DNA from: Candidatus Endomicrobium neocapritermitis
GTDB lineage: Bacteria; Elusimicrobiota; Endomicrobiia; Endomicrobiales; Endomicrobiaceae
DNA length: 60,537 bases
Assembly (NCBI GenBank): GCA_009778325.1
Contig: WRJZ01000042.1
Coordinates: 1 to 60,537, forward strand
Reading direction: 5' to 3'
The position numbers and the translations under genes are program-made. The notes under the pieces are model-generated. The model was not told the DNA's origin. It searched no databases and saw only the letters and a list, made by a program, of their open reading frames with translations. Below, piece after piece: positions 13,424 to 32,780 of this stretch. Within the stretch, counting starts at the first letter, position 1; the number at the start of each line of letters is the position of its first letter.

Positions 13424-13553
13424 CAACAGAGTGAAGAGTTAAAAGTGAAGAGTGAAGATGTCGTGTTTCGGCTTTGCCGAAACTGATTAATAGGTTTTCG
13501 CGAAGCGAAAACACATTATCTCCACTCTTCACTCTTCAATCTTCACTCTTTTC
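13424..13553 (+). repeat. Intergenic long-hairpin element, two-hairpin core
   Basis: Begins AACAGAGTGAAGAGTT at the fabH stop. Arms of GAGTGAAGA units pair over about 32 positions with roughly 28 matches. Core: TTTCGGCTTTGCCGAAA, then TGATTAATAGG, then TTTTCGCGAAGCGAAAACAC. Ends TTTTCTAAAGGA, which holds the ribosome-binding site of fabD. Confidence 0.9.
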
Positions 13554-16909: not shown

Positions 16910-17588
16910 AAGTCTTGAAAAACTTCAAAAGGTTATTGAATACCAGTTCAATAACCTTGAAGTTTTAATGATAGCTTTGACTCATAAATCATACGCAGCC
17001 GAGTCTGGAATACAAATATACAATGAGCGGATGGAATTTCTGGGCGACAGCATTCTGTCCGCTATTGTCGCAGAAAGCCTTTACTACAGATACTCTGACG
17101 AAACGGAAGGAAAACTTTCCCAGTTAAAATCCCAAATAGTGTCGTCTCAGAATTTAAGCGTATGGGCAAAAGAAATTAAGCTCGGCGATTTTATTCTGTT
17201 GGGTAAAAGCGAAGACACAAAAGAAGCGAGGCAGAGGGAAGGTTTGCTGTGCGACGCTTTTGAAGCGTTAGTTTGCGCGGTTTATTTGGACGGCGGTTTT
17301 GAAAACGCGAAAAGAATTGTTTTGAAGTTTCTTGACAAGCAGCAGCAAATAGTTATAACGGATTATAAAAGCAGACTGCAGGAAGCCGCGCAGTCCGAAT
17401 ATAAAGTTTTGCCGGAATATAAAATTTTAAGAGAAATGGGGCCCGACCACGATAAGAATTTTGAAGTGGCGGTTTACGTGAAAGATCAGCTTTTAGGCAA
17501 AGGCGCTGGGCATTCAAAAAAAGAAGCCCAGCAGGAAGCAGCGAAGAAAGCTATGAAAAATATAAAAAAAAGAAAGAGTGAAGATTGA
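16899..17588 (+). CDS. rnc: Ribonuclease III
   Basis: The protein has 229 residues. The RNase III signature NERMEFLGDSILS (residues 42-54, metal ligands Glu46 and Asp50) is followed by a second acidic pair in CDAFEALVCA. The dsRNA-binding domain covers about residues 155-225 (YKSRLQEAAQ, GKGAGHSKKEAQQEAAKKAM). It cuts double-stranded RNA in rRNA and mRNA maturation. The final residues (about RKSED) and the stop codon lie inside the AGAGTGAAGATTGAAGAGTG arm of a hairpin element. The message therefore ends in a long predicted dsRNA stem, which is itself a potential RNase III substrate. Confidence 0.96.
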   Translation: MSNKSLEKLQKVIEYQFNNLEVLMIALTHKSYAAESGIQIYNERMEFLGDSILSAIVAESLYYRYSDETEGKLSQLKSQIVSSQNLSVWAKEIKLGDFILLGKSEDTKEARQREGLLCDAFEALVCAVYLDGGFENAKRIVLKFLDKQQQIVITDYKSRLQEAAQSEYKVLPEYKILREMGPDHDKNFEVAVYVKDQLLGKGAGHSKKEAQQEAAKKAMKNIKKRKSED

Positions 17589-17704
17589 AGAGTGTAGAGT
17601 GGAGATGTTGTGTTTCGGCTTCGCCGAAACCTATTATATGTTTTTGCTTCGCAAAAACTCGTTATCTTCACTTTCCACTCTTCACTTTCCACTCTGTAGT
17701 TAAA
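17574..17704 (+). repeat. Intergenic long-hairpin element overlapping the end of rnc
   Basis: Arms AGAGTGAAGATTGAAGAGTG and CACTCTTCACTTTCCACTCT. Core TTTCGGCTTCGCCGAAA, CCTATTATATG linker, TTTTTGCTTCGCAAAAACTC. Ends TGTAGTTAAAAAGGGG, which provides the ribosome-binding site of the acyl-CoA dehydrogenase. The first ~15 bases are coding for RNase III. Confidence 0.9.
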
Positions 17705-28484: not shown

Positions 28485-29465
28485 ATGTTAAGAGTTCTAG
28501 TCACCGGCGCCAGCGGTTTTGTCGGAAGTCATATAGTTGAAACTTTGCTTGCCAAAAAGCATCAGGTTACCTGCATTGTAAGGAAAACGTCTGATTTATC
28601 ATGGATAAGCCATTTGCAGGTGTTTTTTAAATACGGCGATTTAAGCGATGAGAAATTTCTTGAAATATGCGTAAAAGAAGCCGATGTCGTGGTTCATTGC
28701 GCGGGAAGCGTAAGAGCATTTAACAGAGACGAGTATTTTAAATCCAATGTTGAAAATACGAAAAATCTTTGTAATGCCGTTATGAAAGCCAATCCCTCGC
28801 TTAAAAAATTTATTTTTATTTCATCGCAGGCCGCAATGGGGCCGAGCAGTTCAAGCGAGCCGAAAAAGCTTAGTGAAGAAGAAACTCCGGTTTCGGATTA
28901 CGGTTTAAGCAAAGTTGTGGCTGAAGAAGCTATAAAGGAAATATTTACGGAAAGAATACCATATACAATTTTAAGGCCGTCATCCGTTTACGGCCCGAGA
29001 GACAAAGATATTTTTATCTTTTTTAATCTCGTAAACAAGCATTTGAGGCCTGTTACCGTTGAAAAAAGAGTTTTACAGTTAGTTTATGTAAAAGATGTTG
29101 CGGAAGCAGTCATCTCTTGTATAGATAACAAAAAAAGTGATAATAAAACATATTACCTTGCAGAAGCAACTCCTTACACTTGGTCTGAAGTAGGCCAGGT
29201 AATATCTAAATCCGTAGGAAGAACGACAATGCCTTTACCGGTGCCCGACTTTGTTTTCAAATTCGCCGGTATGGCGGCGCAGTCATTTTCGTATATAACT
29301 AAAAAGCCGGCAGTGCTGAATAAGCAGAAAATTAATGAAATGCTTCAGGAATATTGGATTGCCGACAACAAGCCTGCCCGCGATGATTTGGGAATAGAGT
29401 TTACCAAGCTTGAAATTGCTTCTAAAATAACATACAATTGGTACTTAAATAATAAGTTTTTTTAG
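28485..29465 (+). CDS. NAD(P)-dependent epimerase/dehydratase-type SDR, CerR-like candidate
   Basis: A 326-residue extended short-chain dehydrogenase. GASGFVGSHIVET (residues 8-20) binds the dinucleotide, the catalytic pair is Tyr139-x3-Lys143 (SDYGLSKVVAEE) with Ser113/114, and LRPSSVYGPRDKDIF is typical of the family. It is followed after 24 bases by a serine palmitoyltransferase-like gene and then a GNAT-like gene. In Caulobacter an SDR of this class (CerR) lies near spt and acts in ceramide formation, so a ketosphinganine or ketoceramide reductase role is inferred here. A sugar-nucleotide or steroid-type SDR role cannot be excluded from the sequence alone. Confidence 0.75.
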   Translation: MLRVLVTGASGFVGSHIVETLLAKKHQVTCIVRKTSDLSWISHLQVFFKYGDLSDEKFLEICVKEADVVVHCAGSVRAFNRDEYFKSNVENTKNLCNAVMKANPSLKKFIFISSQAAMGPSSSSEPKKLSEEETPVSDYGLSKVVAEEAIKEIFTERIPYTILRPSSVYGPRDKDIFIFFNLVNKHLRPVTVEKRVLQLVYVKDVAEAVISCIDNKKSDNKTYYLAEATPYTWSEVGQVISKSVGRTTMPLPVPDFVFKFAGMAAQSFSYITKKPAVLNKQKINEMLQEYWIADNKPARDDLGIEFTKLEIASKITYNWYLNNKFF

Positions 29466-29489
29466 TATAGAAAAAAGGGGTTTAGTTTA

Positions 29490-30674
29490 ATGAGTTCTGA
29501 TATTTTTGAGAAATGTTTTGAGTTCCACGGTGCTAATGACCTTAAAAAAGCCGGTGTTTACCCGTACTTTCACAGGATTGAATCACAGCAGGGTCCGGAA
29601 ACAATAGTAGACGGAAACAAGAAAGTAGTAGTGTGCTCAAATAACTATTTGGGCCTTGCGAGCCATCCTAAGGTAATAGAAGCTTCAATGGAAGCCGCGA
29701 AAAAATACGGAACTTCGGGAACAGGCTCAAGATTCCTTAACGGTACCAGCGATTTACACGAAAAAGTGGAAAATAAATTTGCGAAGTTTGTAAATAAAGA
29801 GGCCGCGGTTCTCTTTACTACCGGGCATCATTCGAATTTGGGCGCCATAGCATGCCTTGTAGGCAAAGGCGAAGTTGTAATTACGGATAAACTTGACCAT
29901 GCTTCAATAATAGACGGCTGCCGCCTTTCCTTTGGTGAAATGGCGAGATTCAGGCATAATGATATGACTGACCTTGAAAGACAGCTTGTAAAACATCAGG
30001 GAAAAGGCATGATGATAGTAGTTGACGGCGTTTTCAGCATGGAAGGAGATATTGCAAACCTCCCTGAAATCGTTAAACTTGCAAAGAAGTACGGCGCAAG
30101 AGTTTATATTGACGAAGCCCATTCAATCGGCGTAATCGGCGAAAACGGCAAAGGAACGGGCTCTCATTTTAATTTGGAAGAAAACATTGATGTTTTGATG
30201 GCAACCGCTTCAAAGTCTCTTGCCTCAATCGGCGGATTTATCGCAAGCAAAGCGGAAGTAATTGATTATGTGAAACATACGGCGAGACCAATGATATTTA
30301 CCGCAAGCCTTCCGCCGGCGTGCGTAGGCGCGATAGACGCTGCGCTGGATTTAATGGTTCAGGAGCCTGAACGAAGAATAAAACTTATGGAAAACGCTAA
30401 CAAAATGAAAGCTGCTTTTCAATCCATGGGTTATAATACAAACCATTCTCAATCGCCGATTATCCCTTTAACCGTAGGAAGCGATTTAGTAGCTTTTAAA
30501 ATGTGGAGAATGCTTTTTGACGAAGGCGTATTCGCGTCTCCTGTCGTAACTCCGGCTGTTCCGGAAGGGCAGGCTATTATACGAACAAGCTATATGGCCA
30601 CTCATACTGACGATCACTTAAATTTTATACTTGATAAATTCTCTAAAGTAGGAAAAGCGCTGGGAGTAATTTAA
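29490..30674 (+). CDS. spt: Serine palmitoyltransferase-like alpha-oxoamine synthase
   Basis: A 394-residue PLP enzyme. The PLP lysine is Lys242 in ATASKSLASIGGF; His137 (DHASIIDG), Asp208 and His211 (YIDEAHS) complete the active site. Features shared with bacterial serine palmitoyltransferases, as I recall the Bacteroides enzyme, are AGVYPYFHRIE near the N-terminus, GSRFLNGTSDLHEK, RLSFGEMARFRHNDM, VVDGVFSMEGDIANLPEIV and the closing TSYMATHTDDHLNF. It would condense serine with an acyl thioester to 3-ketosphinganine. Glycine C-acetyltransferase (Kbl) and KAPA synthase are relatives, but these specific motifs and the neighbours favour sphingoid synthesis. Confidence 0.78.
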   Translation: MSSDIFEKCFEFHGANDLKKAGVYPYFHRIESQQGPETIVDGNKKVVVCSNNYLGLASHPKVIEASMEAAKKYGTSGTGSRFLNGTSDLHEKVENKFAKFVNKEAAVLFTTGHHSNLGAIACLVGKGEVVITDKLDHASIIDGCRLSFGEMARFRHNDMTDLERQLVKHQGKGMMIVVDGVFSMEGDIANLPEIVKLAKKYGARVYIDEAHSIGVIGENGKGTGSHFNLEENIDVLMATASKSLASIGGFIASKAEVIDYVKHTARPMIFTASLPPACVGAIDAALDLMVQEPERRIKLMENANKMKAAFQSMGYNTNHSQSPIIPLTVGSDLVAFKMWRMLFDEGVFASPVVTPAVPEGQAIIRTSYMATHTDDHLNFILDKFSKVGKALGVI

Positions 30675-30789
30675 CCTGCAGAGTTAAGAGTGAAAAGTGG
30701 AGAGTGGAGATACGGCAACGACACTAAATATCCGCGCGAAGCGCTCATTATCTTCACTCTCCACTTTTCACTCTTCACTCTGCCTTTAA
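30675..30789 (+). repeat. Intergenic hairpin element with centre inverted relative to 9106-9220
   Basis: Left arm CTGCAGAGTTAAGAGTGAAA and right arm TTTTCACTCTTCACTCTGCC. The centre (ACACTAAATATCCGCGCGAA, then GCGCTC) is almost the exact reverse complement of the centre of the element between ndk and ackA. Confidence 0.88.
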
Positions 30790-30819
30790 GACTACAAACT
30801 TATTTAATTGGGAATAAAA

Positions 30820-31932
30820 ATGAAAATAGCCAAAGTAGAAACTTCAAAGCAGTTCAGACAATTTATTCGTTTTCCGTGGAAAATATATTCTAAAAGCAGT
30901 CCCTGGGTGCCTCCGCTTATATCCGAAGCGATCTCAATACTTTCCGAAGGCAAAAATCCTTTTTGGCTTCACGCCAAAAAACAGCTTTTTCTCGTTTATG
31001 ACGACAATAACAATATAATCGGCAGGATTGCCGCGATTATCGATTATAACTACATTAATTTTCAGGATGACAAATGCGGTTTTTTCGGTTTTTTTGAATG
31101 TGTTGATGACGCTGTCGCGGCAAAAGCTCTTTTTGACGCCGCGAAAAACTGGCTTAATGAAAACGGCATAAATAAAATGATGGGGCCGATGAATCCTTCC
31201 ACAAACGACGAGCTTGGATTCCTGTCCGAAGGCTTTGATTTGCCGCCAAGCTTTATGATGCCTTATACGCATCAATACTATATTAATCTTGCCGAAAAGT
31301 CAGGCCTTAAAAAAGTTAAGGAATTATACGCATACGACATGGATGTCTTGGGCGATTCCAGAGTCGGAAGACTTGAAAGAATCGTGGAAATGTCAAAAAA
31401 GAAAATGCCGACTTTAAAAGTCCGTTCGCTCGATAAAAATAATTTTAAAGAGGATTTAAAAGCGGCAATATCAATATACAACCGCGCCTGGGAGAAAAAC
31501 TGGGGTTTTGTGCCGTGGAGCGATGAAGAGTTCGCCGATATAGCGGTTAAGCTGAAACCTTTGGTAGACCCTGATATGGTTATTGTCGCGACGGTTGAAG
31601 GAGCTCCCGTCGGAATGCTTATTTCCATGCCTGATTATAATCAGGTTTTGAAAAAGCTTAACGGAAGCCTTTTGCCGTTCGGCTTATTTAAATTTTTATA
31701 TTATAAAAGCAAAATAGATTCTCTGCGGTTAATGGTAATGGGCGTTATAAAAGAGTACAGACACAAAGGAATAGAAGCGGTGATGTATGAAAAAGGTCTG
31801 AAAAACGCGCTAAAAAACGGATATAAACACTGCGAACTTTCATGGGTGCTTGATGATAATGTTATGACGCAGCGCACGGCTGAGATGATGAACGGAAAAG
31901 TATATAAAAAATACAGCATATACGCTTTGTGA
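30820..31932 (+). CDS. GNAT-fold-like protein next to spt, candidate bacterial ceramide synthase
   Basis: The protein has 370 residues from ATG 30820 (GGGA upstream; the frame extends to a TTG at 30808). It starts with VETSKQFRQFIRFPWKIYSK and SPWVPPLISEAISIL, then a GNAT-like core with IIGRIAAIIDYNYI, GFFGFFECVDD and MMGPMNPSTNDELG (residues about 110-125), and ends with VIKEYRHKGIEAVMYEKGLK and YKHCELSWVLDDN. This resembles the YghO-like group of acyltransferases. Bacterial ceramide synthase of Caulobacter is a GNAT-type N-acyltransferase of similar size, so with an spt and an SDR immediately upstream the protein may N-acylate the sphingoid base. The function is inferred from context. Confidence 0.65.
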   Translation: MKIAKVETSKQFRQFIRFPWKIYSKSSPWVPPLISEAISILSEGKNPFWLHAKKQLFLVYDDNNNIIGRIAAIIDYNYINFQDDKCGFFGFFECVDDAVAAKALFDAAKNWLNENGINKMMGPMNPSTNDELGFLSEGFDLPPSFMMPYTHQYYINLAEKSGLKKVKELYAYDMDVLGDSRVGRLERIVEMSKKKMPTLKVRSLDKNNFKEDLKAAISIYNRAWEKNWGFVPWSDEEFADIAVKLKPLVDPDMVIVATVEGAPVGMLISMPDYNQVLKKLNGSLLPFGLFKFLYYKSKIDSLRLMVMGVIKEYRHKGIEAVMYEKGLKNALKNGYKHCELSWVLDDNVMTQRTAEMMNGKVYKKYSIYAL

Positions 31933-31939
31933 AAAAAAA

Positions 31940-31968
31940 TTGATTTTATATTCAAAAGTTTGTAAAAT
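31940..31968 (+). promoter_or_regulatory. Promoter for the Lys-rich protein gene
   Basis: TTGATT (31940-31945), 17-base spacer, TAAAAT (31963-31968). ATG 32003 follows after GGAGGG. One of the cleanest promoters in the window. Confidence 0.75.
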
Positions 31969-32002
31969 TCTTGTATTAAAAAGCTTTTTGGAGGGTAAAA
32001 CA

Positions 32003-32473
32003 ATGGCAACAAAAGTATCAAAAAAGAAAGTTACGGCAGCTGTCTGCGGAAATGCGGAAGCAGCGGAAGTTAAAGAAATTAAAAAGAAAGTTGTCGCAAA
32101 AAAAACAACAGCGAAAAAAAAGGCGGCAGCGCCAAAAAAAACCGTGAAAGCGGAAGCTCCCAAAAAAGAAAAAGCAAAGGCAAAAAAAGTTAACGGCAAT
32201 TATCCGGATGCTTATTTGGTTATAGATTACCCCGTAGAATCCGAAACAATATGCGGAGACCATTATGCCGTAAAAGTCGGCGCTTCGACTGACGGATATG
32301 TCGAGATATCTTTTGATAACGGCGAGTGGCAGCCCTGCAGATTCGGCGGCGGATACTGGTGGTTCGACTGGTCGTATTTTAATAAAGGCGACCACTCTAT
32401 TGCCGTCAGGCTTCTTGACCCCAGCGGTAATGTAATTGTAGAAACACCGTCAAGGAAGTGCGAAATATGCTGA
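32003..32473 (+). CDS. Histone H1-like Lys/Ala-rich protein fused to a small beta-rich domain
   Basis: The protein has 156 residues from ATG 32003 behind GGAGGG (a longer frame from TTG 31940 begins inside the promoter and is rejected). Residues about 3-70 are a Lys/Ala/Thr tail with VSKKKVTAA, KKTTAKKKAAAPKKTVK and KKEKAKAKK units, like eukaryotic H1 or bacterial HctB-type tails. Residues about 73-156 are non-repetitive: AYLVIDYPVESETICGDHYA, DGYVEISFDNGEWQPC, GGGYWWFDWSYFNKGDHSIA, RLLDPSGNV, likely an Ig-like beta sandwich with four cysteines. DNA binding or cell-surface charge roles are guesses. It overlaps the next small gene. Confidence 0.75.
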   Translation: MATKVSKKKVTAAVCGNAEAAEVKEIKKKVVAKKTTAKKKAAAPKKTVKAEAPKKEKAKAKKVNGNYPDAYLVIDYPVESETICGDHYAVKVGASTDGYVEISFDNGEWQPCRFGGGYWWFDWSYFNKGDHSIAVRLLDPSGNVIVETPSRKCEIC

Positions 32474-32659: not shown

Positions 32660-32780
32660 AAAGACAGAGTGAAGAGTGAAAAGTGGAGAGTGGAGATATT
32701 GAATTTCGGCTTCGCCAAAATCTATTAATAGGTTTTCGCGTAGCGAAAACACTTTATCTTCACTCTTCACTCTGCCTTTA
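32660..32780 (+). repeat. Intergenic long-hairpin element, GAGTGAAGA arms
   Basis: CAGAGTGAAGAGTGAAAAGT pairs with TTATCTTCACTCTTCACTCTG. Core TTTCGGCTTCGCCAAAA, TCTATTAATAGG linker, TTTTCGCGTAGCGAAAACAC. Ends TCTGCCTTTAATG. Confidence 0.9.

What the first reader, a model, noticed from the sequence alone, without database searches (positions are those of the whole stretch)
28485..31932. Candidate ceramide (sphingolipid) biosynthesis locus: SDR, serine palmitoyltransferase-like and GNAT-like genes
The middle gene has many motifs of bacterial serine palmitoyltransferase, not just of alpha-oxoamine synthases in general. The flanking SDR and the 370-residue GNAT-like protein correspond in type and size to CerR and bacterial ceramide synthase of Caulobacter. 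The three enzyme classes needed for dihydroceramide are thus in a row. If the organism is an elusimicrobiote, I am not aware of sphingolipids described in that phylum. The nearby LpxL-like acyltransferase adds to an outer-membrane lipid theme.
Basis: partly seen in the sequence, partly recalled or inferred. Interest (0 to 1): 0.75.

Follow-up and report, generated by a model that had tools for sequence, protein, structure and literature searches.

The report
Bacterial ceramide biosynthesis genes in Endomicrobia
Three neighbouring genes in a termite-gut bacterium of the phylum Elusimicrobiota very probably make ceramide, the core of sphingolipids; the set is found across most of its class, including what is very probably a cultured species, so lipid analysis can test it directly.

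Summary
SDR (28485-29465), alpha-oxoamine synthase (29490-30674) and tandem-GNAT protein (30820-31932) lie in a row on the + strand of an Endomicrobiia genome (Elusimicrobiota). The synthase falls in the serine palmitoyltransferase (Spt) clade with crystallised Spts (100/99 support). Grouping with Kbl or BioF is rejected (AU p 2e-5, 4e-4). It carries the Spt alanine where sulfonolipid SulA has lysine. The GNAT belongs to the YghO/bCerS family and shares residues invariant in 30 Spt-linked homologues but not in unlinked ones. The SDR groups with SDRs of Spt clusters. The trio is adjacent in 60 of 96 Endomicrobiia genomes, including a single-contig genome that is almost surely Endomicrobium proavitum, the family's only isolate. 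Spt-GNAT pairs also occur in class Elusimicrobia. So this is a dihydroceramide-type locus: a new member of a known kind, in a phylum for which I found no published link to sphingolipids. No lipid has been measured. New: in a few endosymbionts Spt has decayed to remnants, while in two of them SDR and GNAT stay intact under purifying selection (dN/dS about 0.15-0.17). This makes salvage of host sphingoid bases a testable idea, though why the SDR is kept is unexplained.

The parts
28485..29465 (+). CerR-type SDR (epimerase-fold ketoreductase); GASGFVG Rossmann motif, Y139-xxx-K143 catalytic pair, no obvious signal peptide
   Evidence: groups with SDRs of Spt clusters against sugar epimerases of the same genome (100/99, only two outgroup rows); adjacent to Spt in 67 Endomicrobiia genomes
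29490..30674 (+). Serine palmitoyltransferase (PLP alpha-oxoamine synthase); catalytic Lys242
   Evidence: Spt clade 100/99, AU tests against Kbl and BioF; equivalents of SmSpt N52, S81, H138, S185, D210, H213, T241, S243, K244, A274, R367 all present
30820..31932 (+). Bacterial ceramide synthase-type N-acyltransferase (tandem GNAT, YghO family)
   Evidence: fold: tandem GNATs, FemX, N-myristoyltransferase
30678..30783 (.). Palindromic extragenic repeat lying between Spt and GNAT (long hairpin, -62 kcal/mol, z -11.9); probably not part of the function
   Evidence: Spt-GNAT gap is only 24 nt in the nearest relative L009

Best explanation
The locus encodes the bacterial ceramide pathway. Spt condenses L-serine with a long-chain acyl thioester (probably acyl-ACP from fatty acid synthesis) to 3-ketosphinganine. 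The tandem-GNAT protein N-acylates the long-chain base. The SDR reduces the 3-keto group, before or after N-acylation (the order is disputed even in Caulobacter). The product would be dihydroceramide or a close variant, a membrane lipid anchor with an unknown headgroup, made alongside lipid A. Shown here: homology, phylogeny, residue conservation, synteny, selection. Inferred: the substrates, the product, and that it is a membrane lipid.
For: AOS tree of 49 rows: the 35-row Spt clade, holding the window protein, Sphingobacterium 3a2b and a Sphingomonas Spt that matches crystal structure 2jg2 over full length at 907 bits, is supported 100/99; Kbl, BioF and Elusimicrobiota paralogues lie outside. 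AU rejects Endomicrobiia+Kbl (p 1.9e-5) and +BioF (p 4e-4). The position of SmSpt Ala274 is Ala in all 35 Spt-clade rows and Thr/Ser/Asn in all 14 others; SulA has Lys there (PMC9304779). GNAT: full-length homologues sit near Spt and an SDR in Sphingomonas, Roseomonas, Klebsiella, E. coli (yghO with Spt-ACP-SDR-acyl-AMP ligase), Rubrobacter, Streptomyces and Aureispira; W223 and R302 are invariant in 30/30 Spt-linked rows and absent from 6/6 unlinked ones. Trio adjacent in 60 of 96 class genomes.
Against: No lipidomics or enzyme assay exists. NCBIfam Spt cut-off is not reached (502 of 640 bits). The Spt motif GTFSKS reads ATASKS in the Endomicrobiaceae sampled, so substrate preference (Ser, Ala or Gly; chain length) could differ. 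No dedicated ACP or acyl-AMP ligase adjoins, unlike Proteobacteria. SDR identity to proteobacterial cluster SDRs is only 26-30%, and its assignment leans on linkage. The characterised Caulobacter proteins themselves were not available for comparison.
Confidence: 0.87

Rival explanations
1. The locus makes a sphingolipid-like but non-serine lipid: a 1-deoxyceramide (from alanine or glycine) or a sulfonolipid (from cysteate), through the same three-step logic.
For: Same gene set; the variant ATASKS loop and Thr in place of SmSpt Ala79 could shift amino acid choice; 1-deoxysphingolipids are abundant in anoxic Black Sea water (PMC11334938).
Against: The SulA-diagnostic Lys281 is Ala here; the cysteate acyltransferase 28eh scores 255 bits against 389 for Sphingobacterium Spt; residues that contact L-Ser in SmSpt (Asn52, Ser81, His138, Ser185) are kept.
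Confidence: 0.08
2. Unrelated metabolism: the AOS is a Kbl/BioF-type enzyme, the SDR a sugar-nucleotide enzyme, and the GNAT an ordinary acetyltransferase, neighbours by chance.
For: All three superfamilies are broad; the general Pfam models cannot separate these functions.
Against: Phylogeny, AU tests and class-wide synteny; a separate BioF-like paralogue exists in the same genome (L003); the same three genes recur together in other phyla.
Confidence: 0.02
3. The genes are sound but hardly expressed, or the lipid is a trace product with no envelope role.
For: Several endosymbiont-genus genomes lack the genes, so they can be dispensable in that state.
Against: dN/dS of about 0.04-0.19 for SDR and GNAT among Spt-bearing relatives shows long-lasting purifying selection.
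Confidence: 0.03

Closest known systems
Caulobacter crescentus ceramide genes spt (CC_1162), cerR (CC_1164), cerS/bCerS (CC_1154)
   Same: Same three enzyme classes; the GNAT is of the same full-length family as that of Caulobacter-like operons in Sphingomonas, Roseomonas, Klebsiella and E. coli
   Different: No acpR/aasR next door, no second LptF/G or phosphosphingolipid headgroup genes; cerS sits directly behind spt, whereas in Rhodobacteria it is in a separate operon (PMC11324152). The Caulobacter sequences themselves were not compared.
Rubrobacter radiotolerans plasmid cluster (L045) and Streptomyces sp. NBC_01001 plasmid cluster (L047)
   Same: Spt, GNAT and SDR in one tight row
   Different: Order Spt-GNAT-SDR instead of SDR-Spt-GNAT; 44% and 42% Spt identity, 39% and 37% GNAT identity
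Bacteroidota Spt (Sphingobacterium multivorum, PDB 3a2b/8guh)
   Same: Closest solved structure; catalytic and PLP-binding residues equivalent
   Different: GTFSKS loop is ATASKS; ceramide genes of known Bacteroidota producers are scattered (PMC11334938), here they are clustered
Black Sea 'Spt-like' clade B of 38 phyla (PMC11334938)
   Same: Same gene logic, spt often with cerR and bCerS nearby
   Different: Elusimicrobiota is not named in the main text; it may be in the supplement, which could not be read

Membership tests
Bacterial serine palmitoyltransferase | Phylogenetic placement with characterised Spt, apart from Kbl and BioF | tested here: met
   Clade 100/99; AU p 1.9e-5 and 4e-4 against the alternatives. 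HemA was not in the tree.
Bacterial serine palmitoyltransferase | Catalytic Lys, stacking His, PLP-binding Asp and His, Arg for the substrate carboxylate | tested here: met
   Equivalents of SmSpt K244, H138, D210, H213, R367 present; these are shared with the wider AOS family
Bacterial serine palmitoyltransferase | Ala at the SmSpt 274 position (Lys in SulA) | tested here: met
   Ala in window and all Spt-clade rows, in none of the 14 Kbl/BioF-type rows
Bacterial serine palmitoyltransferase | SPT-characteristic GTFSKS motif | tested here: not met
   ATASKS; T, S and K kept. Also varied (GTCSKS/T, GTFSKT, CTFSKT) in other cluster-linked members and present in one BioF row, so not strictly defining
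Bacterial serine palmitoyltransferase | NCBIfam equivalog cut-off (NF047600) | tested here: not met
   502 bits of 640, best hit nonetheless; a naming threshold, not a biochemical criterion
Bacterial serine palmitoyltransferase | Condensation of serine with a palmitoyl thioester | not testable with these tools
   Needs enzyme assay
Bacterial ceramide synthase (bCerS) | Full-length homology to the GNATs of Spt operons; tandem GNAT fold | tested here: met
   About 31-41% identity over at least 95% of length to Spt-linked GNATs of other phyla; tandem GNAT matches by Foldseek, mean pLDDT 77
Bacterial ceramide synthase (bCerS) | Residues specific to Spt-linked members | tested here: met
   W223, R302, M146, L168 conserved in at least 29/30 linked rows and absent from 6/6 unlinked rows; this set was defined here, not published
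Bacterial ceramide synthase (bCerS) | N-acylation of a long-chain base | not testable with these tools
   Needs enzyme assay
CerR | SDR grouping with SDRs of Spt clusters | tested here: met
   100/99 against two sugar epimerases of the same genome; the outgroup is thin
CerR | Periplasmic location (as reported in Caulobacter) | tested here: inconclusive
   Starts MLRVLVTGASGFVG with no obvious signal peptide; cluster SDRs of Klebsiella and E. coli start alike. Location was not predicted formally.
Sulfonolipid synthase SulA | Lys281 | tested here: not met
   Ala

The most novel reading that the evidence does not exclude
Some endosymbionts of termite gut flagellates (genus g3, probably Endomicrobiellum) have lost de novo sphingoid base synthesis but keep bCerS and CerR to acylate (and reduce) long-chain bases taken from their protist host: a bacterial sphingolipid salvage pathway. 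Genomes G250 and G290 keep intact SDR and GNAT flanking Spt remnants; both genes show dN/dS near 0.15-0.17 between them, and on the G290 branch nonsynonymous changes are fewer than neutral (26 of 58, p under 1e-4).
Probability: 0.25. Interest if true: 0.72.

Novelty: new member of a known kind. Interest (0 to 1): 0.47.

Why it matters
It extends predicted sphingolipid synthesis to a host-associated phylum whose members live in termite guts, ruminants and inside protists, and points to culturable test organisms (a genome matching E. proavitum carries the trio; one matching E. minutum carries Spt-GNAT). The decay of spt with retention of bCerS and CerR in endosymbionts makes the open question of bacterial sphingolipid salvage, raised in PMC11324152, directly testable.

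Tried and rejected
Kbl/BioF identity: rejected by tree and AU test. SulA/sulfonolipid identity: disfavoured by Ala at the SulA Lys281 position. Sphingolipids as a replacement for lost LPS: not supported, since LpxC is present in 65 of 77 family genomes and mostly co-occurs with Spt. LpxL linkage: gene order is shared with the E. proavitum-like genome but unrelated genes lie between; treated as incidental. PDB sequence search for the GNAT gave nothing significant, hence the fold search. A shared inactivating lesion of spt in G250/G269/G290 could not be found, since the deletions differ, so one loss and several cannot be told apart.

Full report
OBSERVATION. The three ORFs are present, intact, on one strand and closely spaced. 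The synthase's best family and structure matches are serine palmitoyltransferases, though it stays below the NCBIfam equivalog cut-off. The GNAT matches only the general GNAT model in Pfam and nothing significant in the PDB by sequence. The window belongs to an Elusimicrobiota genome of class Endomicrobiia: all close named relatives are Endomicrobium/Endomicrobiellum or Elusimicrobiota MAGs, apart from one Bacteroidetes MAG at 49%.

SYNTHASE. I built a maximum-likelihood tree of 49 alpha-oxoamine synthases: window and relatives, Sphingobacterium Spt 3a2b, a Sphingomonas Spt that matches 2jg2 at 907 bits over full length, Spts from clusters on named plasmids, Kbl, BioF and Elusimicrobiota paralogues. 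A 35-row clade with 100/99 support holds all Spts and the window protein. AU tests reject joining Endomicrobiia to Kbl (p 1.9e-5) or BioF (p 4e-4). Residues that hold PLP and L-Ser in the S. multivorum enzyme (PMC10196870) are conserved, and the SulA-diagnostic lysine (PMC9304779) is alanine, as in all 35 Spt-clade rows and none of 14 others. The Spt loop GTFSKS is ATASKS throughout the Endomicrobiaceae sampled, a lineage-specific variant of unknown effect.

GNAT. tblastn against plasmid records found 45 records with homologues, 44 of them over at least 80% of the query. In Rubrobacter and Streptomyces the gene lies in one row with Spt and an SDR, and in Aureispira beside Spt with a divergent SDR; in Sphingomonas, Roseomonas, Klebsiella and E. 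coli (yghO) it lies a few to about 10 kb from Spt in Caulobacter-like sphingolipid regions with an ACP and LptF/G-type genes and, except in the Sphingomonas stretch, an acyl-AMP ligase. In a 36-row tree the window protein lies among Spt-linked proteins; W223 and R302 are invariant in 30 linked rows and replaced in 6 unlinked ones. The root of that tree is unsure, and the place of the Chloroflexota/Bacteroides group is unresolved. AlphaFold2 gave a model of mean pLDDT 77 whose nearest solved structures are tandem GNATs, with FemX and N-myristoyltransferase further down.

SDR. It groups with SDRs of Spt clusters (100/99) against sugar epimerases of the same genome. The outgroup has only two rows, so linkage carries part of this assignment.

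DISTRIBUTION. In 341 Elusimicrobiota genomes, GNAT homologues occur in 242 and AOS homologues in 314; the high-scoring ones (E about 1e-120 or better) are the Spt-like ones as far as sampled in the tree. Of 96 Endomicrobiia genomes, 78 have Spt, 79 GNAT, 79 SDR; all three are adjacent in 60, Spt-GNAT in 70, Spt-SDR in 67. G294, a single contig of 1,588,979 bp, has the trio; its length matches what I recall for E. proavitum, the family's only isolate (PMC11257099). G079 (1,643,562 bp, recalled as E. minutum) has Spt-GNAT without an adjacent SDR. These names are inferred. In three class-Elusimicrobia loci the pair follows a biotin carboxylase and a cytidylyltransferase-like gene.

LOSS IN ENDOSYMBIONTS. 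In genus g3, genomes G250, G269 and G290 lack Spt. Between SDR and GNAT lie colinear Spt remnants in all three, only two short pieces in G290. Their mismatches are spread evenly over codon positions (for example 15/15/20) against 42/19/150 in a functional pair, so decay is not recent. SDR and GNAT are broken in G269 but intact in G250 and G290, with dN/dS 0.15 and 0.17 between those two. G250 and G290 are sisters in the GNAT tree (100/98), where G269 was not included. On the G290 branch since its split from G269, 26 of 58 changes are nonsynonymous, fewer than neutral (p 6e-5 to 4e-8 by assumed expectation), whereas the G269 GNAT shows 55 of 68, consistent with neutrality. The remaining AOS of G290 is BioF-like. 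Caveats: whether Spt was lost once or repeatedly is unknown; part of the conserved history may predate the loss; and salvage of a ready-made sphinganine would not need CerR. Salvage is therefore an idea (probability 0.25), not a conclusion.

MECHANISM. By analogy with Caulobacter (PMC11087976, PMC11324152): Spt makes 3-ketosphinganine, bCerS N-acylates, CerR reduces. The order is disputed. Acyl-ACP is the likely donor, as no dedicated acyl-AMP ligase adjoins (inference). LpxC is present in most of the family, so the lipid would accompany lipid A rather than replace it. The headgroup is unknown.

NOVELTY. [quoted passage not shown] No paper in the held library joins Elusimicrobiota with serine palmitoyltransferase, and the main text of the 2024 Endomicrobia genome study does not mention sphingolipids. 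The phylum may still be listed in unread supplements. I rate the locus a new member of a known kind.

Noticed in passing
30678-30783 (also 13436-13548, 17576-17694, 32667-32692): Palindromic extragenic repeat built on GAGTGAA-like heptads: 13 near matches in the window (0.02 expected) and 13 exact core copies in the genome. The copy between Spt and GNAT folds into a very stable hairpin; the gap there is only 24 nt in the nearest relative, so it looks inserted.
   Followed up: partly
L053 (G290), L054 (G250), L055 (G269), between SDR and GNAT: Spt reduced to colinear remnants while SDR and GNAT remain intact in two of three endosymbiont-genus genomes.
   Followed up: yes
L065, L066, L068: In class Elusimicrobia, Spt-GNAT sits directly behind an AccC-like biotin carboxylase and a PF01467 cytidylyltransferase-like gene, with no adjacent CerR-like SDR.
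   Followed up: partly
L070 4436-6270: Behind Spt-GNAT of G188: LPG_synthase_TM (PF03706) and CDP-alcohol phosphotransferase (PF01066) genes, candidate sphingolipid headgroup enzymes.
   Followed up: no
L084 6007-7221: Priestia megaterium plasmid synthase lies inside the Spt clade but has no GNAT or SDR neighbour.
   Followed up: no
G290:C1:882867-883329: LpxC is fragmented in G290, suggesting a lost or altered lipid A pathway in that endosymbiont.
   Followed up: no
31940-32473: Lys/Ala-rich protein without Pfam match, between GNAT and SMC; a similar short Lys-rich ORF is in the same place in L056 (E. proavitum-like).
   Followed up: no
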